Below, piece by piece: positions 19,662-34,927 of a stretch of DNA of 34,927 bases. The position numbers were made by a program, and so were the translations under genes. Source of the DNA: Pirellula sp. (lineage in GTDB: Bacteria > Planctomycetota > Planctomycetia > Pirellulales > Pirellulaceae); assembly GCA_021300155.1 (NCBI GenBank), contig JAJTID010000067.1, forward strand, positions 1-34,927, given 5' to 3'. Positions within the stretch are counted from its first letter, which is position 1, and the number at the start of each line of letters is the position of its first letter. Below the pieces are notes generated by a model, which ran no database searches, was not told where the DNA came from, and worked only from the letters and a program-made list of their open reading frames with translations.

Positions 19662-19662
19662 T
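19657..19662 (+). promoter_or_regulatory. Possible -10 box (TATAAT) before the ROK gene
   Basis: A perfect TATAAT lies 57 bases before the ATG at 19720. A poor -35 candidate, TTGGGA, sits 15 bases upstream. Position fits a sigma-70-type promoter for the ROK-lepA pair, but the -35 match and spacing are weak. Confidence 0.3.
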
Positions 19663-19719
19663 TTCGCGGAGGAATAGGCTTCTTCCCGCTGAACTTAAGT
19701 GCTTTTGAGCAAACGAGAT

Positions 19720-20745
19720 ATGACCACTCAAACTATTTGTTCGCTCACGCAGGCTACCCATCCCATTTATTTGGGAATCGACGTCGGCGGGACGGGCATC
19801 AAGATCGGCGTCGTGGACGACGAGGGAAAGACACTCGGGTTCACGTCGATCGCCACGGAGGAACCGCGGGGGCCAGCCGATGCCATGGACCGAGTGGTAA
19901 CGGCCTGTAAGAAATTGTTGTCGGAGATCGGGATTACTCTGGCAGATGTTGCTCGCGTGGGACTTGGAACACCCGGCAGCCAGGACATTCCCAAGGGAAT
20001 GCTGATCGAACCACCGAACCATCCCCATTGGCATCATTTTCCAATTGTCGCATGCCTCGAAGAGAAGATCGGTCGACCCGTTTCTTTTGCAAACGATGCA
20101 AATGCTGCGGGGTTCGGTGAATTCTGGGTTGGCACAGGTCGAGTGTATAGCAGTATGGCGTTGCTGACTCTGGGTACTGGAGTGGGCGGCGGGTTGATTA
20201 TTGATAATCAACTGGTGGTGGGTCAAAACAGTTTCGGAGGTGAATGCGGTCATCTCATCATTGACTCGCGGCAAGATGCACGACTGTGCGTTTGGGGCGG
20301 TGGACGTGGACATCTCGAAGCGTATGCGAGTGCTAGTGGCGTGGCAGCCCGAGCACGCGAACAGTTGGCGGCAGGGGCCACGAGTTTGCTAAGCGATCGA
20401 GCGGCTACAGTTACTAGTCGCATGATCTACGAAGCGGCGAGTCAAGGGGATGTGTTCAGTCTTCACATCATCGACGAGACGGCCGATTACTTGTCGATTG
20501 GAATCACAACGATTGTTCACATGATCGATCCGGGATTGGTCGTACTGGGTGGTGCGATGAACTTTGGTGGAAATGAATCACCTGTTGGCAGACGATTTTT
20601 ATCGCGGGTTACTGAGTCATTCCGCAAACGTAGCTTCGAGTATGTCGCGGACGGAACGAAGATAGAGTTCGCTTCGCTCGGTGGAGATGCTGGATATTTG
20701 GGTGCGGCTGGAATTGCTCGCATTGACAACAAGACAAAGGGTTAA
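19720..20745 (+). CDS. ROK-family sugar kinase (glucokinase-like)
   Basis: 341 residues from the ATG at 19720; a GTG at 19699 would add seven. ROK kinases phosphorylate hexoses such as glucose with ATP. Visible motifs are phosphate-1 LGIDVGGTGIKIGVVDDEG, the sugar-binding and catalytic FANDANAAGFGE (Asp of NDAN as base), phosphate-2 TLGTGVGGGL and GGECGHLIID. The ROK zinc motif, normally CXCGXXGCXE, reads CVWGGGRGHLE here: the first Cys is kept, the second is Trp and the last is His. Zinc binding may therefore be lost or altered. The adenosine region VVLGGAMN is present. It is followed by lepA after 54 bases. Substrate cannot be told from the sequence; glucose is the default guess. Confidence 0.88.
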   Translation: MTTQTICSLTQATHPIYLGIDVGGTGIKIGVVDDEGKTLGFTSIATEEPRGPADAMDRVVTACKKLLSEIGITLADVARVGLGTPGSQDIPKGMLIEPPNHPHWHHFPIVACLEEKIGRPVSFANDANAAGFGEFWVGTGRVYSSMALLTLGTGVGGGLIIDNQLVVGQNSFGGECGHLIIDSRQDARLCVWGGGRGHLEAYASASGVAARAREQLAAGATSLLSDRAATVTSRMIYEAASQGDVFSLHIIDETADYLSIGITTIVHMIDPGLVVLGGAMNFGGNESPVGRRFLSRVTESFRKRSFEYVADGTKIEFASLGGDAGYLGAAGIARIDNKTKG

Positions 20746-20799
20746 TTCCTTTCGCAATTGCGACTTGCGATTGCGATTTCATGATAATAGGTTTAGTAA

Positions 20800-22638
20800 A
20801 TGAGTTTAGTCAAAGAAGGCGGGAAACACGGGGAGATTCCTCAATCTCGTATTCGCAATTTTTGCATCATTGCCCACATTGACCACGGCAAGAGTACGCT
20901 GGCCGACCGGCTGCTGGAGAAAACAGGTACGGTTGAATTGCGCAAAATGAAAGAGCAATTGCTCGACGCGATGGATCTTGAGCGGGAACGCGGAATCACA
21001 ATCAAAGCCAAAGCCGTTTGCTTGAACTACAACTACAAAGGAGAAGTTTACGAACTGAATTTGATCGACACGCCGGGCCACGTCGATTTTCAATATGAAG
21101 TCTCTCGATCGTTGACCTGTTGCGAAGGTGCGTTGCTATTGGTGGATTCATTTCAGGGCGTTGAGGCGCAGACTGTTGCGAACGCTTATGCGGCGATGGA
21201 TCACGATTTGAAGATCATCCCTGTCATCAACAAAGTGGATTTGACCCACGCGAGAGTGGACGATGTTTCCAAGGAGATGGAACAGATCCTCGGAATCGAT
21301 CCAACTGAAATCGTCAAATGTTCTGGCAAGGCGGGTATTGGTATCGATGAACTCCTAGAAGCGATCGTCGAGCGAATCCCGGCTCCTAGCGGTGAAGTTA
21401 CAACCTCGTTCAAGGCGATGGTGTTCGATTCGAATTATGACGATTACCGAGGCGCAATTACTTACGTTCGATTGATGCAGGGGGAGATCAAAAAGGGAGA
21501 CAAGGTCCGCTTCTTAGGCGTTGGAGCCAACTACGAAGTGCTCGAGATTGGACAGTTTATCCCTTCGCGTCGTCCGTGCGAGAAACTGCGTGCGGGTCAG
21601 GTGGGATATCTCATTTGCAATATCAAGTCGCTCAAAGATGTTCGTATTGGCGATACCGTCGCATTGGTGAGCGACACAAACGCCGAGTTGTTGCCTGGCT
21701 ATCAACCACCCAAGCGGATGGTGTACTGTGGTCTTTATCCGAGCGATGGGCAAGAGTTTACCGAACTGCGCGATGCGTTGGAAAAGCTTTCCATCAACGA
21801 TCCATCCTTTGAGTTTGCGCCAGAAACCAGCGATGCATTGGGATTCGGATTCCGATGCGGATTTCTGGGGCTGTTGCACATGGAGATTGTCCAGCAGAGG
21901 CTCGAAAATGAATGCGACATCGATTTGGTGCAAACAGCACCGAACGTAACGTACGAGATCATCAAACGTGGTGGGACCAGAATGGAGATCCATCGCCCGC
22001 AAGAAGTGCCAGATTCTGGAGAGATCGAAGAGTTTCGGCAGCCTATCGTGCGAGTGAACTTCGTTCTGCCACAGGAGTACATCGGCATCACGATGAAGCT
22101 TTGTCAGGACCGACGCGGCATGCTTCGAGGCAATGAGTTTCTTTCTGCGACACGTTCGTTGGTGACTTATGATTTGCCACTGGCGGAAGTGATCTACGAT
22201 TTACACGATAAACTCAAGAGCGCGACGCGTGGATACGGAACGATGGACTATGAGATCATCGGCTATGAACCGGCGGATTTGGTGCGCATGGACATTCTCG
22301 TGAATGGAAAGCGTGTCGATGCGCTCAGTATCATCTGCGATCGACGAGACTCGGATCGACGCGGACGCGCCGTAGTCAAGAAACTCAAGGATGAGATCGA
22401 TCGACACATGTTCGAAGTAGCAGTTCAAGCGGCCATCGGGTCGCGTGTGATCGCAAGAGAAACCGTACCAGCCATGCGAAAAAATGTTACTGCCAAGTGC
22501 TACGGCGGTGACATCACTCGAAAACGCAAACTGATGGCGAAACAACGTGAAGGTAAGAAACGTATGAAATCGATCGGTTCGGTCGACATCCCTCAACGTG
22601 CATTCATGGCGGTGCTGGATACGGGCGAAAGCAAATAG
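20800..22638 (+). CDS. lepA: Elongation factor 4 (LepA)
   Basis: 612 residues, slightly longer than the E. coli protein through an N-terminal extension before [20 protein letters not shown]. This ribosomal GTPase acts on stalled or mistranslocated ribosomes. GTPase motifs: P-loop AHIDHGKST, switch region [18 protein letters not shown] and NKVD. The typical EF4 C-terminal domain is present ([20 protein letters not shown]). The ATG start at 20800 has only a weak upstream signal. It lies behind the ROK kinase and converges with the reductase gene at 22676, with 37 bases between them containing a short ACAGT/ACTGT inverted repeat near 22651. Confidence 0.97.
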
Positions 22639-22675
22639 AAGTCTGTTTACAGTCAATACTGTGATCTTTGGTTGG

Positions 22676-23917
22676 CTAAGCGTCGACCACGATGTTGCCG
22701 TCTGGAACACAAACGCAGGGCAAAATCTCGTTAGTCTTTAGTTGGAACTGTGGCTTGCGGGTATAACGCACCTTACCTTGAAGGAGCTTCACAGCACAGG
22801 TGCCGCACGCACCTGTTCGGCATCCGCTGTTGATCGGAATATGGCTCTCCGTGGCAAATCCCAGGAGATTGGGATAGGTAGTTGCAAAGTCGGCCAGCTT
22901 GTTGGATTGACGAAAATGGACCGAGCATGGTGCAGCTTTCCGTTCTTCCGCAGGTTTTTCTGGAGTTTGGCTTTCCTGAAATAGTTCGAATCTTACATTC
23001 TTTTCAATTGCACCACATTCGACCAGTTCATTCTTCAATTTGGTTTGCCATGCTTCTGGACCGCAAAGATAGAAGTCAGCTCGTTGGAGATCTTCGATCG
23101 AATTGCAAACGTCACTTGCTGTGTATTTGCCTTGCTGAATGATGTTGGTTGATGACCCCTTTACACCGCGTGGAAATTCGCTCAGCCACATATGAATTCG
23201 GGCTTTCGGAAAGTTGTGGGCCGCATTGAGCAGGAACTCCCCAAAAGGCATGTGATCTACATCACGATATTGGGCAAACAAGTTGACAGAATCGTGCGAG
23301 CATTTCAGCGTTTCTATCAACATGGGCAGCATGGGCGTGATGCCGATGCCCGCGCTCAAAAGAACGATGTGTCGCTTCGTGCACGATTGAAGATAGAACG
23401 AGCCTGATGGGCCGCGCACACGAACGGTGTCCCCCACATCGATTTCTTCGTGTAGCCAACGGCTTACGCTGGCTGGAGCCACTGAGTTCTTTTTTACGGA
23501 TATACGCCAATAGCTTTGTTGGTAGTCATCGGAAAGACTGTAGCATCGGAACTCGGTGGGCAAACCATCGAGCGGAGGACGCTCGATCAGTAAATGTTGA
23601 CCTGGAAGGAATCGAGGGAGTGGCGAGCCGCTCGTTTCCACGAGGTAAAAGGATTTCACGTCTGCTGATTCTTGATCGACTCGGACTACTTGAGTCGAGA
23701 ACCACTCGGCAGCGCGCTCAGTGACTGCGAGAGTAATGTAGGCATGTTGAAGGGCGCCGGAGATTTCGGAATCCCACCGTTGGGTTTGAACGGCGTTGGT
23801 TCTCTCCAACCTACGGTTTTGCAGCCCGGATTTCACACAGGAGCGTGCTAACGCAAACAGCAACAAAATGACGCTGGCGAGAAGCAAAAGTGTCGGAGCA
23901 AAGGTCCAGGGACTCAT
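22676..23917 (-). CDS. Membrane-anchored FAD/NAD(P)H oxidoreductase with C-terminal 2Fe-2S domain
   Basis: 413 residues. The start is fixed by AAGGAG five bases before the ATG at 23917; the frame is open 72 codons further but without protein-like text. One N-terminal helix (about 6-25, TFAPTLLLLASVILLLFALA) anchors it to the membrane. Then come an FAD-binding ferredoxin-reductase domain (FRCYSLS 123-129), a nucleotide-binding domain (HIVLLSAGIGITPMLPML 183-200 and YLCGPEAW 283-290) and a plant-type ferredoxin domain with Cys366, Cys371, Cys374 and Cys401 (SGCRTGACGTCAV). This order resembles hybrid-cluster-protein reductases and other class IA reductases; the TM helix recalls NqrF, but there NqrF carries its ferredoxin domain at the N-terminus. 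It passes electrons from NAD(P)H to an unknown partner. Confidence 0.88.
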   Translation of the reverse strand: MSPWTFAPTLLLLASVILLLFALARSCVKSGLQNRRLERTNAVQTQRWDSEISGALQHAYITLAVTERAAEWFSTQVVRVDQESADVKSFYLVETSGSPLPRFLPGQHLLIERPPLDGLPTEFRCYSLSDDYQQSYWRISVKKNSVAPASVSRWLHEEIDVGDTVRVRGPSGSFYLQSCTKRHIVLLSAGIGITPMLPMLIETLKCSHDSVNLFAQYRDVDHMPFGEFLLNAAHNFPKARIHMWLSEFPRGVKGSSTNIIQQGKYTASDVCNSIEDLQRADFYLCGPEAWQTKLKNELVECGAIEKNVRFELFQESQTPEKPAEERKAAPCSVHFRQSNKLADFATTYPNLLGFATESHIPINSGCRTGACGTCAVKLLQGKVRYTRKPQFQLKTNEILPCVCVPDGNIVVDA

Positions 23918-24217
23918 ATCGGCTCCTTCGTCACCCGTACGACCGCAAATTGATTGGAATTGTTTCAAAAGTCTGTGTTTGGCGGTCGAGGGTCTATTTA
24001 CCCGACTTCGAAGGATTGCGAGAATAAAAGGTATTAATTGCCTATTCGGACTTTTGAGTTGGGCTAGGGAGCTGCCGTGGTTACAAAAACGACTGCTCCC
24101 TCGCATGCATTGACATTTACAACTCGCGTTCAATGGGTTTTTCCATCACCCACAAACCCCGAGGTTATATCCTGCCTGTTTTGGGAATCTGGAATTGGCC
24201 TTAGGGGTAAGTGAAAT
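23918..24217. other. Divergent intergenic region before rnc
   Basis: 300 bases between the reductase gene (-) and rnc (+). The reductase frame stays open on the minus strand, but its text is not protein-like. No RNA gene or clear promoter seen; presumably it drives both genes. Confidence 0.45.
23923..23928 (-). promoter_or_regulatory. Shine-Dalgarno site of the reductase gene
   Basis: Minus-strand AAGGAG, five bases before the ATG at 23917. It decides the start against the longer open frame reaching 24133. Confidence 0.7.
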
Positions 24218-24979
24218 TTGGTCAGATCGAAACAAATCTTGGAAACTCCAGAAACGCCGACTTTTGATGATGTAGCTTCTCCCGATGCAAAGCTCGAAAG
24301 ATGCCAAGGCATCATTGGGTACCGATTTCAGGATCCAGGGATCCTGTTATCGGCTTTGACCCATTCAAGCGTTGCGACGACGCGGACTCAATCCAACGAG
24401 AGAATGGAGTTTTTGGGCGATTCGATTCTTGGGATGGTGGTTTGTGTGAGTTTGTTTCGTAGCTATCCAGACTATCTTGAGGGAGAGCTAACGAAAATAA
24501 AATCGGTTGTCGTTTCAAGACGAGTCTGCGCAAAAATTTCGCGTCAATTACGATTAGATGAGTGCTTGATCGTTGGACGTGGTATGTTAAAGACCGCGAT
24601 GCCGAGATCATTGTTGAGCGATGTTTTCGAAGCGATTGTTGCAGCGATTTATCTGGATGGTGGTATCGAAGCGGCGACGCGGTTCATCATGCAGCACATT
24701 GAGCCGGAAATGCGATTAGCCGCAGATGGTCATCACGGAGGGAATTTCAAGTCATCGTTACAGCAATTGGCACAACGAGATCTAAAGGGTACGCCCATTT
24801 ATCGTTTGGTAGATGAGTTCGGGCCCGATCATAGCAAGCAATTTCAGGTCGTGGCAGAGATAACGGGAAAGCGATTTGCGCCTGCGTGGGGACGTAACAA
24901 AAAAGAAGCGGAGCAAAGAGCCGCAGGAAACGCACTATCACAACTCCGTGGCGAGGACGCCCCATTTACCACCATGTAA
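24218..24979 (+). CDS. rnc: Ribonuclease III
   Basis: 253 residues from a TTG at 24218; no ATG or GTG lies between it and the nuclease domain, and AGGGG stands about a dozen bases upstream. RNase III cuts double-stranded RNA, including rRNA precursors. The nuclease domain (about 25-160) carries the signature NERMEFLGDSIL (60-71) with acidic residues Glu64 and Asp68, and SDVFEAIVAAIYLDGG with Asp135 and Glu138, so all four metal ligands are present. A double-stranded-RNA-binding domain follows (about 175-245, ending KKEAEQRAAGNALSQL). Unusually for rnc, the downstream partner is a surface protein only 12 bases away, not era or recO. Confidence 0.95.
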   Translation: MVRSKQILETPETPTFDDVASPDAKLERCQGIIGYRFQDPGILLSALTHSSVATTRTQSNERMEFLGDSILGMVVCVSLFRSYPDYLEGELTKIKSVVVSRRVCAKISRQLRLDECLIVGRGMLKTAMPRSLLSDVFEAIVAAIYLDGGIEAATRFIMQHIEPEMRLAADGHHGGNFKSSLQQLAQRDLKGTPIYRLVDEFGPDHSKQFQVVAEITGKRFAPAWGRNKKEAEQRAAGNALSQLRGEDAPFTTM

Positions 24980-24991
24980 GGAAGCGACCGA

Positions 24992-27559
24992 ATGAGAATA
25001 AAGACAAAACGATTACGAAAGTTCACTTACGAGTCCCTCGAACCACGATTTGTTATGACCGCGGAAGGTAGCGTTTTCAGCCTTCAACAGTCGTATGACA
25101 CCTCGGGGCTTGGTGGAAACGTCAGTGGCGTTGTTGAGTGGGGTGATGGCCTAACCGCACCGCTCGCCATAGGCAATCAAACCGGTCTCGGCTCATTGCG
25201 CTTTAGATTCGATTATTCGCTCGATTCCTCGGGATTTTTCGCCGACAGCCAGCGAAGACAAATACTGCAGAATGTTGCAGACTCAATAACTTCAAAATTA
25301 TCGGATACCCTGCAAGCAATCGTACCATCGGGAGCTAGTACATGGACTGCGACGTTTCCCGATCCATCAACCGGCGCAGCAGCATCGCGTCTCAATCTAA
25401 CCGTCAATGCCAATGAAATCCTAGTTTTTGCAGGCGCCCGTTCGATGGGGAATACTCGTGGACTAGCTTCACGAGGTGGATTCAGAAATGCAGGGTCGAC
25501 ACAAGAGTTTATCGATATCGTGCGTGCACGCGGTCAAACCGGAGCGTTAAGCAATCCAGCAACTGATTTCGGTCCGTGGGGAGGCTCACTCTCTTTTGAC
25601 TCTGTTTCGAATTGGCACTTTGGTGCGGATACTATAGGACTAGACGCTAACGAGTTTGATTTCGCAACAGCGGCAGGTCATGAATTGATTCACCTACTGG
25701 GCTTCGGGTTGAGCCCCAGTTTTGATGCGAAACTGGTCGGTGGTGGTTTCGCTGGTGCGAACGCCGTCGCTGTTGCAGGAGTTTCACCTGTCCCTATGGC
25801 TGATTCGGATCACTTCTCAGCCTCGGTGTTGGTAAATGGACAGCAGGCGATTATGGCTCCGCAAATCGATAATGGTCTACGTCGATTGCCGACGCGATTG
25901 GATTTTGCAGCATTGCAGGACGTTGGATGGCAATTCAATTCCCAAACGGTACAGGTATCTGCAAGTCACACGTTTGGTGACAATGCAAACTTCAACGCTA
26001 ACGTACGACTGCGCGGCTCGCTTTACGGAGAACGCGTTTATCCGTTGAGTATCGGAATCACCAATGTAGCGCCGACCCAATCGGTGACAACGAATCGTTC
26101 GACAGCGCAGGGGGTACCCATTTCCATAAGTCGCATCGCTCAGTTCACCGACCCTGGGTTTGGCGCCCCCAATGCAACACCTCCATTAGCAGAGTCGTTT
26201 TCGTATTCCATTGCATGGGGAGACGGATCTCCAAACGATTCTGGGTCGGCAACCATAGAATCGCTAGGCTCTGCCGGAAACCTGACGAGAGGTTTTTTTG
26301 ACGGCACCCACACCTATGCTGCCATCGGCAGTTATGTTGTGACCGTTACAGTGCAAGACGACGATGGTGGAGTCACCCAGCAACAATTCACGATCCAGGT
26401 AACGCCGCCACCTGAACTCAGAGTATCTGTGGATCGACAGTCTGTAACAGAGGATGCAGGCCAAAACGCAGCGAACTTTATCGTGCAAAGGATTGGTTTT
26501 GATCTTGGTAGTAGTCTCTCGGTCAACCTAACTAGCAGTGATACATCCGAACTCACGTTGCCCGCAAACGCAGTATTTCCTGTGGGAATCGATACCATCC
26601 AAGTGCCCATCCATGCGATCGACGATAGTCTCTTGGACGGCTCGATTGCCGTTCAATTGTTCGCTTCGATCAATGCGATTCAGAGCCTCCCCATTGTCAT
26701 GAACGTCCTCGATCGAGAATCGCTGTTGCTGTCTGCTTCTCGATTGGTGTTTGGAGAACATGAAGGAGCGGGCGTCTCGGTCTTGACGGTTACCCGATCC
26801 AATACGGACACTGACCAACCGCTCACAGTGCAATTGATAAGCAATGACCCTAGCGAAGCTACGACTCTTGTAAGCGTTACGATTCCAGCAGGCCAGCAAA
26901 GCACAACGACGGGAGTCACAGCCGTCGATGACAATCTCTTTGATGGCCCCCAATCGGTTCGAATCACGACTAGTGAGGCTCGCTACTCGGATGCCTTTGT
27001 CGATTTGACGGTAACGGACTATCAGCCGATCGCTATAGTACCGATGAAAACAAGATTGTCCGAAGAGGAGCCTGATAATCGGTCCACGCAAACAAGAGTG
27101 GAGATTCGATCACCAGCTCCAGCGGGCGGCATTGCCATCCAGCTATCGACGTCCGTTCCAAGGCAATTGACGTTGCCTGCATCCGTCGTTATCCCAGCAG
27201 GCCAAACCTCAGCCGAGTTTCTCGTTTCGTTGGTGGACGACTTTATTCCACAGGGAGAAAGAAGTGCGCGTATCTTCGCTAGCGGCGATGGGTTAGTGGC
27301 AGCCACTGTCGATTTGGTTTTAACAGATGCCGACCCTGCGTACTGGACCAATCTACGTGAACCCAAGGACGTGAACGATGATAACCTTATTGATGCATTG
27401 GATGTGCTGGATGTCGTGAATTCGCTGAATCGTCTCGGGGCCATCGTGCTTAATCCCAATCGAGACCTGGATCTATCCTTCGTCGATACCAATCGTGATG
27501 GTATCATGGATTCGCTCGACGTACTTCTGCTAGTGAACTTTATTAATAGCAGAGGCTAG
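24992..27559 (+). CDS. Surface protein: LEPR N-terminus, metzincin-like domain, PKD, Calx-beta repeats, dockerin-like end
   Basis: 855 residues. The N-terminus RKFTYESLEPRFVM (10-22) is the planctomycete LEPR type found on many exported proteins. Residues about 45-315 look like a matrixin-type metalloprotease: ATAAGHELIHLLGFG with HELIH at 230-234, later a Met-turn candidate AIMAPQ (Met288) and DFAALQDVGW, all in family order. The third zinc ligand, expected at residue 240, is Leu. A PKD-like domain follows (about 320-475, with IAWGDGSP), then about three Calx-beta-like repeats (475-795), then a C-terminal pair of dockerin/EF-hand-like loops (DVNDDNLIDALDVLDVVN and DTNRDGIMDSLDVLLLVN). Likely exported, calcium-binding, adhesive or proteolytic. 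GGAAG precedes the ATG; 12 bases after rnc and 8 before the next gene. Confidence 0.85.
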   Translation: MRIKTKRLRKFTYESLEPRFVMTAEGSVFSLQQSYDTSGLGGNVSGVVEWGDGLTAPLAIGNQTGLGSLRFRFDYSLDSSGFFADSQRRQILQNVADSITSKLSDTLQAIVPSGASTWTATFPDPSTGAAASRLNLTVNANEILVFAGARSMGNTRGLASRGGFRNAGSTQEFIDIVRARGQTGALSNPATDFGPWGGSLSFDSVSNWHFGADTIGLDANEFDFATAAGHELIHLLGFGLSPSFDAKLVGGGFAGANAVAVAGVSPVPMADSDHFSASVLVNGQQAIMAPQIDNGLRRLPTRLDFAALQDVGWQFNSQTVQVSASHTFGDNANFNANVRLRGSLYGERVYPLSIGITNVAPTQSVTTNRSTAQGVPISISRIAQFTDPGFGAPNATPPLAESFSYSIAWGDGSPNDSGSATIESLGSAGNLTRGFFDGTHTYAAIGSYVVTVTVQDDDGGVTQQQFTIQVTPPPELRVSVDRQSVTEDAGQNAANFIVQRIGFDLGSSLSVNLTSSDTSELTLPANAVFPVGIDTIQVPIHAIDDSLLDGSIAVQLFASINAIQSLPIVMNVLDRESLLLSASRLVFGEHEGAGVSVLTVTRSNTDTDQPLTVQLISNDPSEATTLVSVTIPAGQQSTTTGVTAVDDNLFDGPQSVRITTSEARYSDAFVDLTVTDYQPIAIVPMKTRLSEEEPDNRSTQTRVEIRSPAPAGGIAIQLSTSVPRQLTLPASVVIPAGQTSAEFLVSLVDDFIPQGERSARIFASGDGLVAATVDLVLTDADPAYWTNLREPKDVNDDNLIDALDVLDVVNSLNRLGAIVLNPNRDLDLSFVDTNRDGIMDSLDVLLLVNFINSRG

Positions 27560-27567
27560 CTCGATCG

Positions 27568-30471
27568 ATGCAGAACATTTCGAAATCGCTGTTCAAATTC
27601 CAACGGCGCGCCGCGATACTTTCTATTCTCGAGCTGTTCCTTTTTCTACTAGCGATTTTTGTTGTAACGACCCTTGGTGTACTTTGGGTCGATTCCATTG
27701 TGCCTCTTTCGCCTTCCTCGCGATGGGGGATAAGCCGTGTTGGGGTATTAGCGGGTGTTCTGATCGCATTAGGCATGTGTGTTCAAGGGATGCGAACATG
27801 GAACACGAAGCGGGTCGCGAACTTGATTGATCAACATGCCGATACAGGGGGTACGATGGCGACGGGCTGGGAATTGAATCAAAGTCAACTGAATAAATCA
27901 TTTCGAACTCCATGTCTCGGCCAATCAGCTTCGTTTGCAAACTATGCCGTTCGAAGTGCGATGGAGCAGCTTGAGCGGTTTTCTCCGTCGCAGATCATAC
28001 CTTGGCAGCAATTGCGCCGTCCCCTGATTGCATTAGTGGGTGTTGGATTCTTTGCAACCTTGATGACATTGTTCGCACCAAACTACATGTGGCATCAATG
28101 GAGACGCATCGCTTATCCGCATCTCGATATTCCGCCTTACAGCGATCTCATGCTCTATCTAGAGGAAACGGATCTGAGTATCCAGTATGGTGATGACATC
28201 AAAATCCTCGCCACTTCTTCGAAAAAACCGAGAGAACGGCTCGAATTGGTGACACAAACCAGTAATGGAAAAGAGTATGTTCTGCCGATGCTTTCGCGTG
28301 GTTCGACACAGTGGCAAGCGATGCTGACAGATGTTCACGATTCGATGGAATACTATGTTCGAAGCGGATCAGCACGATCGGAACGAGGCAAGCTTAGTGT
28401 TCAATTGACTCCCCAAATCACCGCAAGTCGCATCCGAATCATGCCTCCCGAGTATACGAGAAAGGCCGTATTCGATGGTCCGATCCCTGAGAATGGGATC
28501 GCTGGATTAGTCGGTACAAAAGTTGTATTGACGCTTGAAAGCAATCGCGAACTAAGCCTTGGAAAACTTCAGTTTCGCTTTGCAGACAACACTGAGTCGA
28601 CTTTAGAGATGCGCCCCGATCAGAAGTTCGCAAGTAAAGAGTTCGCCTCAAATGGAACCAATGAAAGTAGTTCTTCTCGCTCGGTGAGTGTCGCGTTTAC
28701 CCTCAATCGGGATGCATCATTGGAAGCTCGAGTTCGGGACGTGGATGAGCTTCTTTCTACGGACAGTATCCAGTCCAAGCTTCGGTTGATCCAAGATGCG
28801 AAACCCGCAGTCCGGATTGTTGAGCCCAAGCCGATGTCGTTTGCTACACCGGACATCCAACTCCCCGTTGTCATTAACGCAGAAGATGATTTCGGGATAT
28901 CGTCCCTCAGACTGTATCGAAGTTTGAATGGATCCCCAGCTACCGCAGATAACATCCCAACCGATGGCGAATCAAGAATGGATGCCACCATTACTCTTGC
29001 ACTGCCTTTGTACGACTTGCGACCTGGAGATGAAATCGAGTTGTTCGCCCGTGCCGAAGACAATGACCCCTCTGGGTTCAAAGGAGTTGAATCTAAGAAA
29101 ACGACCATCCAGATTATCTCCGTTCGTGAGTTTCAGGAGATACTCATGGAACAACAAGGGGCAGATGCGCTTCGTGCAAAATACGACGCAGCCCAGCGAT
29201 ATCTTGAGAAAATGTCTGCTGCAATAGCAGCAGCCGAAGAGGCAGCAAAGATAGCTGAGCAAAATCCGAACGATATTTCGTCTGCTGCAGATCTACAACA
29301 GAAGTTAATGGACGCAAAAAAGGCAGCATCCGAAGCAGCTCAAGAAATAGAGAAAATTTCTCAAAACGCATCCGAACTGGAACTGGACCAGCAACTCTCC
29401 AAAATGCTTGAAGAGATCGCATCCGATGCGGCAAAAGCTGCCGACATGCTAGAGGACATGGCTGAAGCTCAGAAGGGGGAACGCCCGCTGTCACAGCAGG
29501 AAAAAGAAGAATTGAATTCGTTGCGGGACAAAGTCCAATCGGATCGAAAAGATATACAAGAGGAAGCGATCGATACCATCGACTCTCTTAACCAAGCGAT
29601 GAAGCTGCAACTGGATGAGGAGCAGTTTGAGTCGCTTGCCGAGAGGCAACGTGAGATTGCTGAACGCATGGAATCTTTGCGAACAGAAAACGTAGACGAC
29701 GCAGCCACCGAGCGACGAATGGCAGAGATGGAAGCAGAGCAAGAAGAACTACGTCAGCAACTTCAGGACTTGGTTCAATCGATTCGAGAGCATGCGGAAC
29801 AACTTCCAAACGACGAAGAAAACCAAGGCTTGAAACAATCCGCTTCGGATTTCGCCAACGACCTACAGGAGAGCCAGGCGGAACCATTCATGCGCGGTGC
29901 TCAAAGATCATTGCTCGATTCCAAATTTGAGCAAGCGGCAGAACAAGCCGCGTCGGCTGCCGACGAACTTGAGGAATTGATGAAACAAGGGGATCGTATG
30001 GGACAGGAGGCGCAGCAGAATGCTAGTAAGCAATTCAAGCCTGGGCGGGCCGGGTTCGATCCAAAGCAAGCGCTCGAACAGATGAAGCAAAAGTTCGGAA
30101 GAGGAAAGTCACGTGGATCGCAACTTGGAAAAGGCGGTGGACAGGGCCAAGGCGAATCGGAAGGTGATGCTTCAACGCCACAAGGTAATCAACGAGGTGG
30201 CAACTCTCGACGCAACACTTCGCCGGCCAATACTGGCCTCTATGGATCGAATCCGAAGCCTTCGCCATCGAGTCAAGGGCGTTCAGACCGGATGTCGCAG
30301 GGAGCCGCAACAAGTTCGGCAATTGCCAAACAAGATCAAGGAAAATCATCCAGTCCTTCCGTTACGGAAAGTGATGCTGCAGGACAGGGGCTTCAGAGTA
30401 TTCCACTACAGTACCGAAGCCGAGTCTCGGACTATATGCAGCGAATTTTGGAAAAGCCGAAGTCGCCATGA
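27568..30471 (+). CDS. Large membrane protein with long coiled coil, DUF4175-like
   Basis: 967 residues. Two helices near the N-terminus (about 16-41 and 54-74), with a third at about 152-171 (PLIALVGVGFFATLMTLFAP), anchor the protein. A beta-rich part (about 190-510) holds Ig-like segments such as ILATSSKKPRERLELVT and PVVINAEDDFGISSLRLY. From about 520 to 820 comes a long, highly charged coiled coil rich in Glu, Gln and Ala, then a Gly/Ser/Gln-rich tail. The architecture resembles DUF4175 proteins, which in planctomycetes often accompany MoxR/DUF58-type genes; no such gene is here. The start lies 8 bases after the surface-protein gene, suggesting co-transcription. Its last codons lie in a 74-bp sequence repeated at 33115. 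Confidence 0.8.
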   Translation: MQNISKSLFKFQRRAAILSILELFLFLLAIFVVTTLGVLWVDSIVPLSPSSRWGISRVGVLAGVLIALGMCVQGMRTWNTKRVANLIDQHADTGGTMATGWELNQSQLNKSFRTPCLGQSASFANYAVRSAMEQLERFSPSQIIPWQQLRRPLIALVGVGFFATLMTLFAPNYMWHQWRRIAYPHLDIPPYSDLMLYLEETDLSIQYGDDIKILATSSKKPRERLELVTQTSNGKEYVLPMLSRGSTQWQAMLTDVHDSMEYYVRSGSARSERGKLSVQLTPQITASRIRIMPPEYTRKAVFDGPIPENGIAGLVGTKVVLTLESNRELSLGKLQFRFADNTESTLEMRPDQKFASKEFASNGTNESSSSRSVSVAFTLNRDASLEARVRDVDELLSTDSIQSKLRLIQDAKPAVRIVEPKPMSFATPDIQLPVVINAEDDFGISSLRLYRSLNGSPATADNIPTDGESRMDATITLALPLYDLRPGDEIELFARAEDNDPSGFKGVESKKTTIQIISVREFQEILMEQQGADALRAKYDAAQRYLEKMSAAIAAAEEAAKIAEQNPNDISSAADLQQKLMDAKKAASEAAQEIEKISQNASELELDQQLSKMLEEIASDAAKAADMLEDMAEAQKGERPLSQQEKEELNSLRDKVQSDRKDIQEEAIDTIDSLNQAMKLQLDEEQFESLAERQREIAERMESLRTENVDDAATERRMAEMEAEQEELRQQLQDLVQSIREHAEQLPNDEENQGLKQSASDFANDLQESQAEPFMRGAQRSLLDSKFEQAAEQAASAADELEELMKQGDRMGQEAQQNASKQFKPGRAGFDPKQALEQMKQKFGRGKSRGSQLGKGGGQGQGESEGDASTPQGNQRGGNSRRNTSPANTGLYGSNPKPSPSSQGRSDRMSQGAATSSAIAKQDQGKSSSPSVTESDAAGQGLQSIPLQYRSRVSDYMQRILEKPKSP

Positions 30472-30475
30472 AAAC
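30402..30475 (+). repeat. 74-bp direct repeat, copy 1 (gene 3' end)
   Basis: Covers the last 22 codons and stop of the 967-residue gene and four bases beyond. Copy 2 at 33115-33188 matches 72 of 74 bases in the same orientation. The copy spacing is 2,713 bases. Confidence 0.95.
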
Positions 30476-30514
30476 TTCATTTTCCAGTTACCTTTTTTGG
30501 GCTTACACAATTCG

Positions 30515-30691
30515 ATGAAATTCGATTCTACGAGAAATCCGCAACTAACTTTCATTCTTGCTTTGTTTTTGCTTTGCGGTTTTCCTATCGGAATCAATGC
30601 TCAGGACACGATACTTCCGAACAATCATCGATTCCATCTGGCCCTGCACTGGAATAATCAAGGCCTCGCAGTTAAGAGTTCGCATGTTTAA
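30515..30691 (+). pseudogene. Truncated secreted protein, 58 residues
   Basis: ATG at 30515 opens a typical signal peptide (about residues 10-29, LTFILALFLLCGFPIGINAQ) followed by only 29 residues that end abruptly at 30691 in text without structure (GLAVKSSHV). A 58-residue secreted protein is possible, but the picture fits the 5' end of a longer gene, originally next after the 967-residue gene, cut by the material that begins near 30692. An ATG at 30468 overlapping the upstream stop starts only a 16-codon frame. No family can be assigned from what remains. Confidence 0.5.
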
Positions 30692-30983
30692 GGCCTAGAC
30701 AGCGAGTCGATCGGCAGCGGGAATGGTCGCTTGATTTGGTCGCCCTCGCGCAATTGATTGGATGAACAAACGCAATACTTTGTACCTGTCCATCTTTCAC
30801 TTTCATGCAAACGAGTTCGGTTAGAAGCATTCCGGGTTGGAATCGCTAGGGGCGTTTGTATCGTGTCCGACCGAGCGCAGCGAGTCCCGCCCAGCGGAGG
30901 CGGAGCACGAGCGGGGATGATGAGTTACCGCCGCTTGCACACCGAGCGAGTTCCATCGAAGAATGCGACCGTAACTAACAAAC
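30692..30983. other. Non-coding stretch before the first hairpin repeat
   Basis: About 290 bases without a gene I can support. A GC-rich part at about 30865-30920 (GAGCGCAGCGAGTCCCGCCC and following) has the look of further repeat material. It may be degenerated mobile or toxin-gene sequence, but I see no protein-like frame. Confidence 0.4.
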
Positions 30984-31350
30984 GCATTTGTATTGGCGGC
31001 GGGACACAGCCGACAAAACTCGTTGGATTCCATGCGTTTGCGATTGCCGGTTCTAAGCCCAGGAAGGGCGGAATGGAATAGCCAGGGGGTGCTAACCCCT
31101 GGCTTGCTAGCAAACCAGAAATCCAAGCCCTGGAGGGGCGACAGGGATGCTGGCGTGTTGGAAAACGTTGCGATATGTGTCCCCCCTCGGGGGTCAGGTT
31201 TCCCGCGGAAACCCATCACTGGGGTTGGCACGGTTGGCACCCCAGGCTACTGCTTGCCACGCCTCCAGCTTTCCGGTCCGCACCCGCCGCCGTCCCTTTT
31301 GTCGGCTGCATCCGGCGGGTAAACAACAAATAGCTGTGTCCCTACGGTCA
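30984..31350 (+). repeat. Hairpin-rich dispersed repeat, copy 1 (~367 bp)
   Basis: Nearly identical to 32199-32557 and in the same orientation. Compared with copy 2 it has a 9-base insertion (a doubled TTGGCAC in the last stem-loop), one base missing in the first stem, and scattered substitutions. The small frames within it on both strands occur because the two copies are alike, and I do not count them as genes. It ends just before the toxin-like remnant and the Imm8 gene. Confidence 0.9.
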
Positions 31351-31428
31351 CCACGGTCACGGCACCAATCGCGTTTCGAAGCAGTGGGCGAATGGCTTAA
31401 CAATGTTCATTTAGACGTCAAACCATGA
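31351..31428 (+). pseudogene. C-terminal remnant of a protein, possibly a toxin, coupled to Imm8
   Basis: After the repeat ends, one frame gives 25 residues ending HQSRFEAVGEWLNNVHLDVK-P and a TGA that overlaps the ATG of the Imm8 gene (ATGA). This overlap is what a toxin-immunity gene pair usually shows, and the text is protein-like whereas the frame upstream lies in the repeat. My reading is that the repeat replaced the body of a toxin gene and left its 3' end. The stretch is too short to name a toxin family. Confidence 0.35.
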
Positions 31429-31799
31429 GTAAAAAAACGAACATAACGCCGGAAATTCGATCGATTAGTTCACCTGATATCGAGTTCTACTCGTGGGAAC
31501 CCGCTACGTTGGAAGAAGTCTTCTTCTTGGTTGAGATGGAAATTGGCGAAAAAGGAGTCGCTGGTGCGGACTTGTTTCAGGTCGTAATCTCAACTCCGGA
31601 AGGACTTCGTGCTAAGGCAGGAAGTGGAAAAACGATCCTAAGAGTACGTTCTACAATCGTAGTTTCTAACTACGATTGGAATTGTATACGCGATACTTTG
31701 GAGTCAATAGTCCGCGATTGCGAAGCGGAAAGCTGGGTACACACGACGCTTCGGTTGCAAAGGTATTTCAAGTGGGAGTACGAGGACTTTCAGATGTAG
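31425..31799 (+). CDS. Imm8-family immunity protein
   Basis: 124 residues, usual for Imm8. The family pattern is present: SWEPATLEEVFFLVEMEIGE near residues 24-43, GADLFQVVISTPEGL (48-62), then a beta segment and YDWNCIRDTLESIV, with a C-terminus of Trp followed by LRLQRYFKWEYEDFQM. Imm8 proteins are encoded beside polymorphic toxins and neutralise them in the cytoplasm. No complete toxin gene is present; only a 25-residue frame remnant touches its start (ATGA). The next small gene starts 14 bases after its stop, suggesting one transcript. With no toxin it would be an orphan immunity gene giving protection against kin toxins (inference). Confidence 0.75.
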   Translation: MSKKTNITPEIRSISSPDIEFYSWEPATLEEVFFLVEMEIGEKGVAGADLFQVVISTPEGLRAKAGSGKTILRVRSTIVVSNYDWNCIRDTLESIVRDCEAESWVHTTLRLQRYFKWEYEDFQM

Positions 31800-31813
31800 G
31801 AAAATACAATGCC

Positions 31814-32119
31814 ATGAGTACATCACTTATCTCTGACTTAGAGTCTTGCTGGGATTGGGAGTCCGGCTTCTTCGCAAAGCTGCGTAGGGGGCAATGGGAC
31901 GTAAGTGCGCTGGAACATGTGTTGAACATACTTTCGGCGATAGACGTAAACGATTCCACAGCAATTCCGCGTCGCGTTGTTTCGATGCTATGGTATATGC
32001 CGTTGTTCATGAGTTGGCAGAATGAGCAAGTATCGGAGAGCGGAATCGACCGGCAGAGCTTCGAGTTGGCCGCGAATCGAATCCAAGAGCAAATTGAACG
32101 GATCTTGGGCGTCCCTTGA
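31814..32119 (+). CDS. Small helical protein, putative second immunity protein
   Basis: 101 residues from the ATG at 31814, 14 bases after the Imm8 stop. The frame is open further upstream but overlaps Imm8, so this start is preferred. The product is mainly helical and acidic (DLESCWDWESGFFAKLRRG, later RRVVSMLWYMPLFMSWQ and ELAANRIQEQIERIL), with no signal peptide or membrane helix. I do not recognise the family. Size, cytoplasmic character and place directly behind an immunity gene suggest another immunity protein. Confidence 0.55.
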   Translation: MSTSLISDLESCWDWESGFFAKLRRGQWDVSALEHVLNILSAIDVNDSTAIPRRVVSMLWYMPLFMSWQNEQVSESGIDRQSFELAANRIQEQIERILGVP

Positions 32120-32198
32120 AACCGCCGAACAGTGACCGGAGTCATTCACACCAACGCCTTCACCGCAACGGACAACGAAAGGACATGCACAGCGAATT

Positions 32199-32557
32199 GC
32201 ATTTGTTTTGGCGGCGGGACACAGCCGACAAAACTCGTTGGATTCCATGCGTTTGCGATTGCCGGTTCTAATCCCAGGAAGGGTGGAATGGAATAGCCAG
32301 GGGGTGCTAACCCCCTGGCTTGCTAGCAAACCAGAAATCCAAGCCCTGGAGGGGCGACAGGGATGCTGGCGTGTTGGAAAACGTTGCGATATGTGTCCCC
32401 CCTCGGGGGTCAGGTTTCCCGCGGAAACCCATCACTGGGGTTGGCACCCCAGGCTATTGCATGCCACGCCTCTAGCTTTCCGGCCCGCACCCGCCGCCGT
32501 CCCTTTTGTCGGCTGCATCCGGCGCGTAAACAACAAATAGCTATGTCCCCACGGTCA
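32199..32557 (+). repeat. Hairpin-rich dispersed repeat, copy 2 (~359 bp)
   Basis: Second copy of the element at 30984-31350. Its stem-loops are: 32295-32320, a perfect 11-bp stem (AGCCAGGGGGT/ACCCCCTGGCT, loop GCTA) directly followed by the palindrome TGCTAGCA; a 5-bp C/G stem near 32398-32410; 32413-32429, GGTTTCC/GGAAACC with loop CGC; and 32435-32452, CTGGGGT/ACCCCAG with loop TGGC. It lies 35 bases before the 168-residue gene. There is no transposase, so it is a non-autonomous element or a structured RNA/DNA element. Confidence 0.9.
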
Positions 32558-32592
32558 TCCCCATCAAAATTATTCCATTTCAGGATTAGAAT

Positions 32593-33099
32593 ATGACTAT
32601 GTCGCAACCTGACGATACATCGACAAATCCATGGCATGGGGATTGGAAGGAACGCTTAACCAGCTATCTAGATTCCCAAGGCTTTGGTGACTTGGAATCA
32701 TTCTTAAATGCAAATCCGGGTGTTGGATATGTAAAACTTGCAAAGCAGTTAGGCGATGTGAACGTTGCCGCGATGCAGCTTTACGGAGAACATATTCGAT
32801 TCGCCAACGCAAAAGGTCGACTACGAAGTGTGGCGATGGATTGTCTGGTCAGATTTATCAATGAGTATGTACGACGTGGTTGGGGCGCAGGTAGGCATTT
32901 TGCTCATCGATCAGCTTCGGCATTTGCAACTTGGGCAACAGCGATAACTGCTCATTGTCAAGATTCCAGCATGAAAGATAGGCTTAAACAAGTCTATGAT
33001 GAGTTAGAGCGACTACCAATTCCTTTGGGCTGGTTACCGTCTAGTGCCAACGATCCTTTCATTATTTCGGCATTCGAAAGGGGGTGGCCTTTGAGATAG
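32593..33099 (+). CDS. Small cytoplasmic protein, putative third immunity protein
   Basis: 168 residues from ATG 32593; a second ATG two codons later is equally possible. No signal peptide or membrane helix. It is helical in the first two thirds (WHGDWKERLTSYLDSQGFG, then GYVKLAKQLGDVNVAAMQLY and RSVAMDCLVRFINEYV), and it ends in a Pro/Trp-rich tail (IPLGWLPSSANDP, then FERGWPLR). I recognise no named family. It stands directly behind hairpin repeat copy 2 as Imm8 stands behind copy 1, and it is followed after 15 bases by copy 2 of the 74-bp repeat. The immunity role is inferred from context only. Confidence 0.55.
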   Translation: MTMSQPDDTSTNPWHGDWKERLTSYLDSQGFGDLESFLNANPGVGYVKLAKQLGDVNVAAMQLYGEHIRFANAKGRLRSVAMDCLVRFINEYVRRGWGAGRHFAHRSASAFATWATAITAHCQDSSMKDRLKQVYDELERLPIPLGWLPSSANDPFIISAFERGWPLR

Positions 33100-33114
33100 T
33101 CTCAAGCAAGACAG

Positions 33115-33188
33115 TCCACTACAATACCGAAGCCGAGTCTCGGACTATATGCAGCGAATTTTGGAAAAGCCAAAGTCGCCATGAAAAC
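33115..33188 (+). repeat. 74-bp direct repeat, copy 2
   Basis: Matches 30402-30475 with two G-to-A changes. Here it is not attached to the gene whose 3' end it represents; upstream is the 168-residue gene instead. The sequences after the two copies differ completely from the ninth base of ATGAAAAC onward. Confidence 0.95.
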
Positions 33189-33364
33189 GCATATTCTGTC
33201 GTTGCATTCGAGGGCGATCATGTTCATTTAGGCTGCTAGAACCATGAAATCCTGTTACGCTTTGATAAGTAGGTCTTTTCATTTATCGTTTGTTGATTCG
33301 ACGAGTGTGTGTCGTCGTTTGGCAAATACTGAATACAAACTCAATCGTCGAGGGACACAAAAAA

Positions 33365-33580
33365 GTGGGCATTCGAGAGTTTCGAGATGACATAATCGAC
33401 GACATGATGGCTGAAGCAATTCGCGCAAAATCCCCTACGGAACGGCTAGCTATAGCTTTCAACATGTGGCGTAGCGCGAGACGCATGATATTCGCAAACT
33501 TGCAGCGCGAGCATTCGGATTGGACTCTGGAGCAGTTGACAGCGGAAACAGCCAAAAGGATGTCCGGTGGACGTACCTGA
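33365..33580 (+). CDS. Small helical partner of the nucleotidyltransferase (antitoxin-like)
   Basis: 71 residues from a GTG at 33365, with GAGGG about nine bases upstream; a TTG at 33290 would add 25 unlikely residues. The core KSPTERLAIAFNMWRSARRM and the tail EHSDWTLEQLTAETAKRMSG match a small protein type that, from memory, often stands just before nucleotidyltransferase genes in planctomycetes and cyanobacteria. Its end overlaps the next gene by 14 bases, so the two are translationally coupled. It is probably the stability or antitoxin partner of the enzyme; no experimental role is known to me. Confidence 0.65.
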   Translation: MGIREFRDDIIDDMMAEAIRAKSPTERLAIAFNMWRSARRMIFANLQREHSDWTLEQLTAETAKRMSGGRT

Positions 33581-34133
33581 ACTACTTCTCCATACTACAT
33601 CGGTACTGGAAAGTCTTGGAATCGAGTACCGTATTGTTGGGTCTATTGCTTCGATCGCATACGGAGAACCACGATTTACCAACGATGTCGATATCATCGT
33701 TCGGTTGAGACTGGAGCACGTCAAGGGATTATTGAAAGTGTTTTCGCCACCAGAATTCTACTGTTCAGAGCAGGCTATGGTTCACGCTATCCATCGCAAA
33801 TTCCAATTTAACGTAATTCATCCTGCTTCGGGTCTCAAGGTGGACTTTATCGTCGTTTCTGACTCGGAGTTTGATCAATCAAGATTTCGACGAGGTAAGC
33901 GTCAATTAATAGATCAAGTTAACGAAGCGTGGTTTGCTTCTTCGGAAGATGTTATTTTGAAGAAGTTGGTTTACTTCCATGAAGGTGGGTCGGAGAAGCA
34001 CTTGAGAGACGTAGCGGGGATTTTAAAGGTCCAGGCTGGCAAAACAGAAACGGAATATCTAGAGCATTGGGTCACAGCCTTGGGAGTCGAGGAAGAATGG
34101 CTATTGGTGCAGGAACGCTTGAAACGACAATAA
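33567..34133 (+). CDS. Nucleotidyltransferase, MNT/AbiEii-like
   Basis: 188 residues from a GTG at 33567 inside the end of the upstream gene. The nucleotidyltransferase core is clear: GSIASIAYGEPRFTNDVDII with Gly25-Ser26 and the Asp40-X-Asp42 pair, and the third acidic residue Asp93 in GLKVDFIV. Later EDVILKKLVYFHEGG and HLRDVAGIL match the helical end of this family. Related enzymes add nucleotides to proteins or RNA and occur in type IV (AbiEii) and MNT/HEPN toxin-antitoxin modules. All three metal ligands are kept, so it should be active. No HEPN partner is present; the partner is the 71-residue protein. Confidence 0.8.
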   Translation: MDVPELLLHTTSVLESLGIEYRIVGSIASIAYGEPRFTNDVDIIVRLRLEHVKGLLKVFSPPEFYCSEQAMVHAIHRKFQFNVIHPASGLKVDFIVVSDSEFDQSRFRRGKRQLIDQVNEAWFASSEDVILKKLVYFHEGGSEKHLRDVAGILKVQAGKTETEYLEHWVTALGVEEEWLLVQERLKRQ

Positions 34134-34218
34134 ACCTCTTTCGGCTTTTTGCTCTATGTCTGTAAAGAAGACCTCTCTCGCGAGTCAGATATCCAATTGA
34201 GTTTCGCATTCTTGGGAA

Positions 34219-34927
34219 TCATCTATCGCTGAGCCGGACGGTTACTTTCAGTTCTTCCGAAGTCAATGGCTCTTGCGTCCGTAGTTGAGCAGCGAGGACT
34301 TCTAGCGTTGCATCGGAAGCATCATTGCGGGTCAACCTGCGTTGAGTGATTCTCTGTTGAAGCGTCGCTTCATCGGCCTGAAAATCGAGGATACGGAACT
34401 CGGCGCCCTCCGTCTCCGCCAATCGACGAAAGCGTGCGCGATCCGAATGTTTCAAAAATGTCGCATCGACGATGACGTCAAACCCCGATTGAAGTACGCA
34501 GGAAGCAATCTCCGACAGTCGCTCGTAGGTTACTTCCGAAGCACTCGGTGAGTACATTCCACTACCAACCTCACTACCGAATTGATCTGCTTTGGACGTC
34601 TTGAACAATCTTTTTCGTTCAATGTCCGAACGAACTCGGATCGCCCCTTGTTGTTCGACAATCTGCTGGCTACCAGTTGTCTTCCCGCTTCCGCTTGCAC
34701 CGTGCGTAATCCACATTCTTCTCTTCTTCGGTTGCATCAGTTGAGCAGCCAACCGAATATAGGCATGGACCGGTTCTAATTGTTTGGTATCGAGAGGCTG
34801 ATCATGATTCAATTGTCGCGCTCGGAGCAATGCGACTTTGGAACGGACCATTGCCCGGTAGACCAAATACCATCTCAGTACCACGAGCCCTCGATAGTCT
34901 CCTGTTTGTTCCAGATAGGCATTTAGA
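34219..34927 (-). CDS. P-loop kinase, C-terminal part of a probable APH-like/kinase fusion (5' end outside window)
   Basis: The frame runs from the window edge to the stop at 34219, about 235 codons. A GTG at 34884 could be mistaken for the start, but the codons before it (LNAYLEQTGDYRGL) join smoothly to VVLRWYLVYRAMVRSKVALL, which is the typical junction in COG2187/COG0645 proteins between an aminoglycoside-phosphotransferase-like half and a P-loop half. Walker A is GASGSGKTT; later VIVDATFLKHSDRARFR and LDFQADEATLQQRITQR fit the family. It probably phosphorylates a small metabolite, substrate unknown. It converges with the nucleotidyltransferase gene. Confidence 0.8.
   Translation of the reverse strand, partial: LNAYLEQTGDYRGLVVLRWYLVYRAMVRSKVALLRARQLNHDQPLDTKQLEPVHAYIRLAAQLMQPKKRRMWITHGASGSGKTTGSQQIVEQQGAIRVRSDIERKRLFKTSKADQFGSEVGSGMYSPSASEVTYERLSEIASCVLQSGFDVIVDATFLKHSDRARFRRLAETEGAEFRILDFQADEATLQQRITQRRLTRNDASDATLEVLAAQLRTQEPLTSEELKVTVRLSDR

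What the first reader, a model, noticed from the sequence alone, without database searches (positions are those of the whole stretch)
30402..33188. Accessory segment bracketed by a 74-bp copy of the neighbouring gene's 3' end
The end of the 967-residue gene recurs 2,713 bases downstream with 72/74 identity, in direct orientation and without the rest of the gene. Between the copies lie immunity-type genes, two long repeats and a truncated secreted gene, with no transposase or integrase. This fits insertion at a gene 3' end that left att-like repeats, or acquisition by recombination using short homology. The two differences, both G to A in the orphan copy, imply that the event is not very recent.
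Basis: partly seen in the sequence, partly recalled or inferred. Interest (0 to 1): 0.75.

Follow-up and report, generated by a model that had tools for sequence, protein, structure and literature searches.

The report
Orphan immunity genes behind duplicated tail
A planctomycete bacterium carries a small cluster of what look like antidote genes against other bacteria's toxins, without the toxins, wedged behind an unrelated gene whose duplicated tail probably records how the cluster was spliced in.

Summary
The 74-bp direct repeat is real (72/74, 2,713 bp apart; two copies found in the genome). A close relative (G024, a Pirellula MAG) shows what it is. There the second copy is 356 bp long: it starts inside the gene and runs into an intact SASA esterase gene. 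The full gene is followed by the same truncated esterase and the same first 165 bp of inserted DNA as in the window. So the old order was gene, esterase, kinase. An insertion duplicated the gene end plus the esterase start. In the window the second copy is 74-75 bp, and a toxin-antitoxin pair replaced the esterase apart from its last 20 bases.

The insert looks like an orphan immunity island: Imm8, a 101-aa gene that in G024 follows a PT-TG toxin gene, and a 168-aa gene whose homologues follow PT-HINT toxins. It also holds two hairpin-rich ~360-bp repeats and a fragment of a sequence lying behind toxin-immunity pairs (7 other sites; 6 by domain match, 1 by eye). No integrase was recognised, and copy lengths differ between species, against att sites. 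Best model: donor DNA anchored by homology in the gene end and joined illegitimately at the other side, as proposed for Vibrio immunity arrays.

The parts
27568..30471 (+). 967-aa gene, DUF4175-like (weak), coiled-coil-like C-terminal half (by eye); the gene whose 3' end is duplicated
   Evidence: PF13779 E 1.5e-4, 20.4 bits, below its cut-off of 27.3; orthologue 89% in G024
30284..30640 (+). stretch that is duplicated in G024 (gene codons from about 905, stop, spacer, first ~42 codons of the esterase gene); copy 1 in the window
30402..30475 (+). copy 1 of the 74-bp repeat
30515..30640 (+). 5' fragment of a SASA-family esterase gene (intact in G024), cut off by the insert; the ORF runs on to 30691
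30641..30805 (.). left part of the insert, shared with G024 (13 differences in 165), directly behind the truncated esterase in both
30848..30931 (+). fragment of a noncoding sequence that lies downstream of probable toxin-immunity pairs at the 7 other sites found in 27 genus genomes
   Evidence: 6 of 7 by domain match, 1 by eye
30984..31349 (.). R repeat, copy A: hairpin-rich element with imperfect inverted ends; Acido-Lenti-1-like hairpin at 31056-31102 (-), below gathering score
31425..31799 (+). Imm8 immunity protein
   Evidence: PF15586, E 6.5e-26, 91 bits, cut-off 27
31814..32119 (+). 101-aa orphan immunity gene (inferred); in G024:C87 the same gene directly follows a gene with a PT-TG pretoxin domain
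   Evidence: 746 bp, 96% identical including the R repeat
32199..32556 (.). R repeat, copy B; Acido-Lenti-1-like hairpin at 32434-32479 (+), below the family's gathering score
32593..33099 (+). 168-aa putative immunity gene; homologues (29-30%) directly follow PT-HINT/DUF2380 toxin genes in G314
33115..33188 (+). copy 2 of the 74-bp repeat: displaced end of the 967-aa gene
33290..33580 (+). Rv0078B-related antitoxin
   Evidence: PF18993, E 4.9e-9
33567..34133 (+). nucleotidyltransferase, DUF2204/AbiEii-like, probable toxin of the pair
   Evidence: PF09970 21.0 bits, cut-off 20.3; AbiEii 16.3 bits, below its cut-off
34181..34200 (+). scar: last ~20 bases of the esterase gene, body replaced by the toxin-antitoxin pair
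   Evidence: alignment to L038 14900-15645; the esterase ends at L038 15626
34219..34926 (-). AAA_33 kinase gene (cut by the contig end), the old right-hand neighbour

Best explanation
The segment is an orphan immunity (polyimmunity) island: antidote genes against toxins of competing bacteria, kept without the toxins. It came to lie between a non-toxin gene and its esterase neighbour. Donor DNA that carried the end of the gene, a truncated esterase and immunity genes paired by homology with the recipient's gene (anchor). Its other end was joined without homology inside the recipient gene. The recipient's own gene end and esterase were thereby pushed downstream and now appear as the second copy. 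Later turnover in the window lineage trimmed that copy to 74-75 bp and replaced the esterase by a toxin-antitoxin pair. Shown: the repeat, the old gene order (from one relative), the immunity family of one gene and the toxin-adjacency of the other two or their homologues, and that no toxin family matched among the ORFs scanned in the insert. Inferred: the recombination route, the direction of transfer and the protective function.
For: G024 has the full gene + truncated esterase + the same 165 bp on C175, and on C55 a 356-bp second copy running into an intact 276-aa SASA esterase and then the same kinase. Imm8; the 101-aa gene follows a PT-TG gene in G024:C87 with 746 bp at 96%, against 86.6% for the orthologous flank; the homologues of the 168-aa gene follow PT-HINT/DUF2380 genes at 2 of 2 places, both in G314. 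The domain encoded next to the 101-aa gene was not found in the own genome. The fragment 30848-30931 matches a sequence downstream of probable toxin-immunity pairs at the 7 other sites found. Fourfold-site divergence between window and G024 drops from 76/255 in codons 1-600 of the gene to 21/162 in codons 601-967 (Fisher p 7.6e-5), below the 0.25-0.49 of the six neighbouring ORFs tested: what exchange through this anchor would leave. The displacement model itself was read in PMC5361080, section 13.
Against: The G024 contigs C175 and C55 both end inside the presumed island, so their adjacency is inferred from the window; G024 is a MAG with 6% listed contamination. g1 and g2 are closer to each other (8/356) than to w1 (26/357, 24/356), so either conversion between copies or recent donors must be added. 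Low fourfold divergence could partly reflect constraint on the 3' part; plain nucleotide identity is also 90-93% at 19948-22348, far from the island. A circular intermediate would leave the same scar. The 168-aa link rests on 29-30% identity, and DUF2380 is over its cut-off at only one of the two G314 places. The search for its toxin found nothing in 27 genomes, but without a positive control. R repeats are not specific to toxin loci.
Confidence: 0.55

Rival explanations
1. A circular DNA that carried the island and one copy of the gene end/esterase start entered by a single homologous crossover (Campbell type), duplicating the shared stretch.
For: The copies in G024 are about 356 bp long, and truncated and intact esterase stand where this predicts. 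Recombination between the copies would re-form such a circle.
Against: No replication or transfer family matched among the ORFs scanned in the window's segment, and how a chromosomal gene end got onto a circle is unexplained except by earlier excision.
Confidence: 0.2
2. A local tandem duplication of about 356 bp (replication slippage or template switching) came first; immunity genes were inserted between the copies later.
For: The duplication is just gene end plus esterase start, with no foreign DNA inside the copies. In G024:C231 a xerD-like gene shows a like pattern: 276 bp near its end recur 922 bp further on, 89.9% identical.
Against: In both species the insert begins at the same base of the esterase, so insert and duplication look like one event; fourfold divergence drops over the whole 3' third of the gene, not only in the duplicated part.
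Confidence: 0.15
3. Site-specific integration at the 3' end of the gene, the repeats being attL and attR.
For: Direct repeat at a gene end; only two copies found in the genome.
Against: Copies of different length and left boundary in two species, 356 bp and the next gene's start included in G024; no integrase family among the segment's scanned ORFs.
Confidence: 0.05
4. Transposition: the two R repeats act as ends of a composite element that carries the immunity genes.
For: R is hairpin-rich with imperfect inverted ends; DNA fold z -4.17 for copy B. Related repeats flank an IS200-type Y1 transposase in G024:C73.
Against: R is not at the ends of the island, the 168-aa gene lies outside the pair, no transposase family matched in the window segment, and a 356-bp target duplication is not a usual transposition scar (general knowledge).
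Confidence: 0.05

Closest known systems
Polyimmunity loci (Zhang et al. 2012, PMC3482391; passages of sections 2, 5 and 39 seen)
   Same: Several immunity genes in tandem, one orientation, no toxin gene between them, content that differs between relatives, presumed pre-emptive protection.
   Different: A planctomycete host, while that paper reports extended loci (four or more genes) only in certain lineages of four other phyla; three genes here, one gap of about 470 bp holding a repeat; no neighbouring recombinase recognised; flanked by a displaced end of a non-toxin gene.
Immunity gene arrays of Vibrio cholerae T6SS clusters (Kirchberger et al. 2017, PMC5361080; section 13 read in full, other passages seen)
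   Same: Orphan immunity genes piled up behind a gene, displaced 3' ends, homology-facilitated illegitimate recombination proposed.
   Different: There the anchor is the upstream region of an effector-immunity module in a T6SS cluster; here it is an unrelated gene, and the displaced end is visible as a repeat.
Acquired interbacterial defence clusters of Bacteroidales (recalled; only search listings seen)
   Same: Standing collections of orphan immunity genes.
   Different: As recalled, those lie on mobile elements with recombinases; none was recognised here.
Orphan Rhs toxin-tip/immunity modules (PMC3150448, PMC3967940; search listings only)
   Same: Modules moved by recombination next to a conserved part (recalled; also stated in PMC5361080).
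   Different: No Rhs core in the window: none of the 10 Rhs-core matches of the own genome lies on C10.

Membership tests
Polyimmunity locus | two or more immunity genes side by side | tested here: met
   Imm8 by Pfam; 101-aa gene by toxin adjacency in G024; 168-aa gene more weakly, by 29-30% homologues next to PT-HINT genes
Polyimmunity locus | no toxin gene between the immunity genes | tested here: met
   ORF list; no toxin family among the ORFs scanned between 30515 and 33099
Polyimmunity locus | same orientation, small gaps | tested here: inconclusive
   All +; gaps of about 14 bp and about 470 bp
Polyimmunity locus | content differs between relatives | tested here: met
   Imm8 in 1 of 27 genus genomes; 101-aa gene at another locus in G024
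Polyimmunity locus | immunity proteins neutralise toxins | not testable with these tools
   needs an assay
Integrative element at a gene 3' end (attL/attR) | site-specific recombinase in the element | tested here: not met
   no such family among the ORFs scanned; a degraded or distant one is not excluded, and G024's island is not sequenced through
Integrative element at a gene 3' end (attL/attR) | constant repeat length and boundary | tested here: not met
   356 bp in G024, 74-75 bp in the window, different left edges
Integron cassette array | attC sites and integron integrase | not tested
   R repeats are about 360 bp; no search for an integron integrase was made
Acquired interbacterial defence cluster | carried with a tyrosine recombinase (recalled feature) | tested here: not met
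   none among the ORFs scanned

The most novel reading that the evidence does not exclude
In this genus immunity genes travel as recombinase-free cassettes. Conserved noncoding sequences downstream of toxin-immunity pairs, together with hairpin-rich R repeats, give the homology by which immunity genes leave toxin loci, while ends of ordinary genes serve as anchors where they pile up. The displaced gene ends would then be a readable record of each capture.
Probability: 0.2. Interest if true: 0.75.

Novelty: new variant of a known kind. Interest (0 to 1): 0.5.

Why it matters
It shows, with both junction products still legible across two species, how antidote genes can come to be stored away from their toxins in planctomycetes, a phylum for which the 2012 survey (passages) does not list extended arrays. 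If displaced gene ends mark such captures in general, they can be counted across genomes, which makes the capture mechanism testable.

Tried and rejected
Att-site integration: rejected on boundaries and lack of a recognised integrase. General dispersed repeat: rejected, two copies only. Empty site in other relatives: of 40 genomes searched (own included), 26 had a match to the gene, but apart from the own genome only G024 was above 45% identity; a named-genome scan returned one locus, the same MAG (which warns that near records may be left out). Cognate toxin of the 168-aa protein in the genus: none in 27, no positive control. R repeat as a toxin-locus marker: not borne out. In the own genome it has two full copies, both in the window, and two weak partial matches. 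In G024 one near-full copy (C87) follows a toxin-immunity pair; at the other G024 places whose surroundings I fetched (C73, C133, two in C242, C154) I recognised no toxin gene; C154 lies behind a 190-aa gene without a Pfam match. Fuller toxin-downstream element: of 62 matches in 14 of 27 genomes (the query's own place and short matches included), only 13 have an Rhs core 1.0-1.9 kb upstream on the same strand; many matches in G009, G015 and G017 are elsewhere, and G015 has 13 matches and no Rhs core. So the association is shown for the 30848-30931 part (7 sites), not for the whole element. NCBIfam gave nothing above cut-off for 8 proteins. The promoter/terminator scan was no better than shuffles. 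Literature: no paper held both 'Pirellula' and 'intergenic repeat'; of 13 papers with 'planctomycet' and 'polymorphic toxin' I opened one (PMC3482391, passages). PMC2864571 was opened for passages on Acido-Lenti-1.
Full report
Observation. The repeat is as described: 30402-30475 and 33115-33188, 72 of 74 identical, direct, 2,713 bp apart, and these are the only two copies found in the 6.46-Mb genome, of which the window is the complete contig C10. The closest relative found is G024, a MAG; contig number and length match 'uncultured Pirellula sp. isolate ErkenSummer_bin-0307'. The window genome itself is unnamed.

What the relative shows. G024 carries the 967-aa gene on C175 (89% identical protein). 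The contig follows the window from 19548 to 30805 at 85.4% and then leaves it, ending 182 bp later. A second copy of the gene end lies at the end of C55. It is 356 bp long, corresponds to window 30284-30640, and runs without break into an intact SASA-family esterase (PF03629, E 1.6e-65) and then into the kinase gene that ends the window. So the old order was gene, esterase, kinase. In both genomes the full gene is followed by the same esterase fragment, cut at the same base, and then by the same 165 bp (13 differences). In the window the second copy is only 74-75 bp, and the esterase is gone except for its last 20 bases at 34181-34200; between them lies a toxin-antitoxin pair (33290-34133). 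The own genome has no other close esterase: its two further matches are 29-32% identical.

Age and exchange. Over the 356-357 bp, w1 differs from g1 at 26 and from g2 at 24 sites, and g1 from g2 at 8. In the 75-bp overlap the counts are w1-w2 3, w2-g2 2, w1-g2 3, w1-g1 4, w2-g1 3, g1-g2 1. The first site at which the window copies differ is, by parsimony, a change in the gene copy and not in the orphan copy. The shared left junction makes the insertion older than the split of the two species; the closeness of g1 and g2 asks for later conversion or for closely related donors. Fourfold-site divergence between the species is 76/255 in codons 1-600 of the gene and 21/162 in codons 601-967 (p 7.6e-5), against 0.25 to 0.49 in six neighbouring ORFs. 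This suggests exchange between lineages through the gene's 3' part; constraint is not excluded, and plain identity of 90-93% also occurs at 19948-22348.

What was inserted. Imm8. A 101-aa gene that in G024:C87 overlaps the stop of a gene with a PT-TG pretoxin domain and is followed by the same R repeat; 746 bp are 96% identical and the similarity begins 3 bp before the start codon. The C-terminal domain encoded upstream was found in 1 of 27 genus genomes, G024 itself; the 101-aa protein in 1 of 296 genomes sampled from the order, the own one, a sample that evidently left out G024. A 168-aa gene whose only two relatives among 296 sampled genomes, both in G314, lie directly behind PT-HINT/DUF2380 genes (DUF2380 over its cut-off at one of the two). 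Imm8 occurs in 1 of 27 genus genomes; its published partner is Ntox7, which I did not search for. No toxin family matched among the ORFs scanned in the insert.

Repeats. The fragment 30848-30931 matches seven other places among 27 genus genomes outside the window. All seven lie 200-550 bp downstream of the second gene of a probable toxin-immunity pair, in the same orientation. Evidence per site: Rhs cores within 2.5 kb upstream at four (C393, C119, C128, C509), AHH with Imm11 (C142), PT-HINT (C220), and a by-eye Rhs-end motif only (G023:C2); C509 also has NucA/NucB with ComJ. Of the seven second genes I scanned four: Imm11 and ComJ matched, two had no Pfam match. Four of seven by the Rhs-core rule has a chance of about 4e-11 under independent random placement, a rough figure. 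A wider version of this sequence is less specific: 13 of 62 matches. The R repeats (copies A, B and C87) fold strongly (copy B, z -4.17 as DNA) and hold hairpins like the Rfam family Acido-Lenti-1, below its gathering score in the window (31.9 and 26.2, cut-off 37) and above it in three of eleven other loci searched, L079, L080 and L081. R-like pieces in G024 mostly do not stand at recognised toxin loci.

Mechanism. The most economical reading is homology-facilitated illegitimate recombination, as proposed for Vibrio immunity arrays: the gene end anchors donor DNA and the far end joins without homology, pushing the recipient's gene end downstream. A circle entering by one crossover, or a local duplication filled later, are live rivals. 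Site-specific integration is disfavoured. A similar picture exists in G024:C231: 276 bp near the end of a xerD-like gene recur 922 bp on at 89.9%, with the tail of an R repeat between the copies and, by eye only, a small gene with a nucleotidyltransferase beyond. This suggests that the process is not unique to one locus, on one further case.

Limits. Only one close relative was found in the collections searched; its two contigs break inside the presumed island; no empty site was found; function rests on families and neighbourhoods, not on assays.

Noticed in passing
L080 (G024:C73) 3775-4802; L081 6014-6199; L075 1501-1944: Acido-Lenti-1 hairpins (RF01687, above cut-off) occur as inverted pairs, and in C73 they flank an IS200-type Y1 transposase (PF01797, E 8e-27); an R-tail fragment also stands just before a gene with a weak, below-cut-off Y1 match in L075. 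Acido-Lenti-1 may be a REP-like mobile repeat and not only an sRNA.
   Followed up: partly
L074 (G024:C231) 1192-1467 and 2114-2389: 276 bp near the end of a xerD-like gene recur 922 bp downstream (89.9%), with an R-repeat tail between and, by eye only, a small gene plus a nucleotidyltransferase beyond, much like the window's arrangement.
   Followed up: partly
L056, L067: PD-(D/E)XK family transposase genes (PF12784) lie beside the toxin-downstream sequence in G023 and beside R-like fragments in G024.
   Followed up: no
window 33290-34133: An Rv0078B-type antitoxin gene overlapping a DUF2204-type nucleotidyltransferase gene replaced the esterase body almost exactly from behind the displaced gene end to its last codons.
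   Followed up: partly
L092 (G314:C7) 779-1051 and 2718-2989: A 273-bp direct repeat (97%) of a toxin gene's upstream part brackets a toxin-immunity module, a likely orphan-module array.
   Followed up: no
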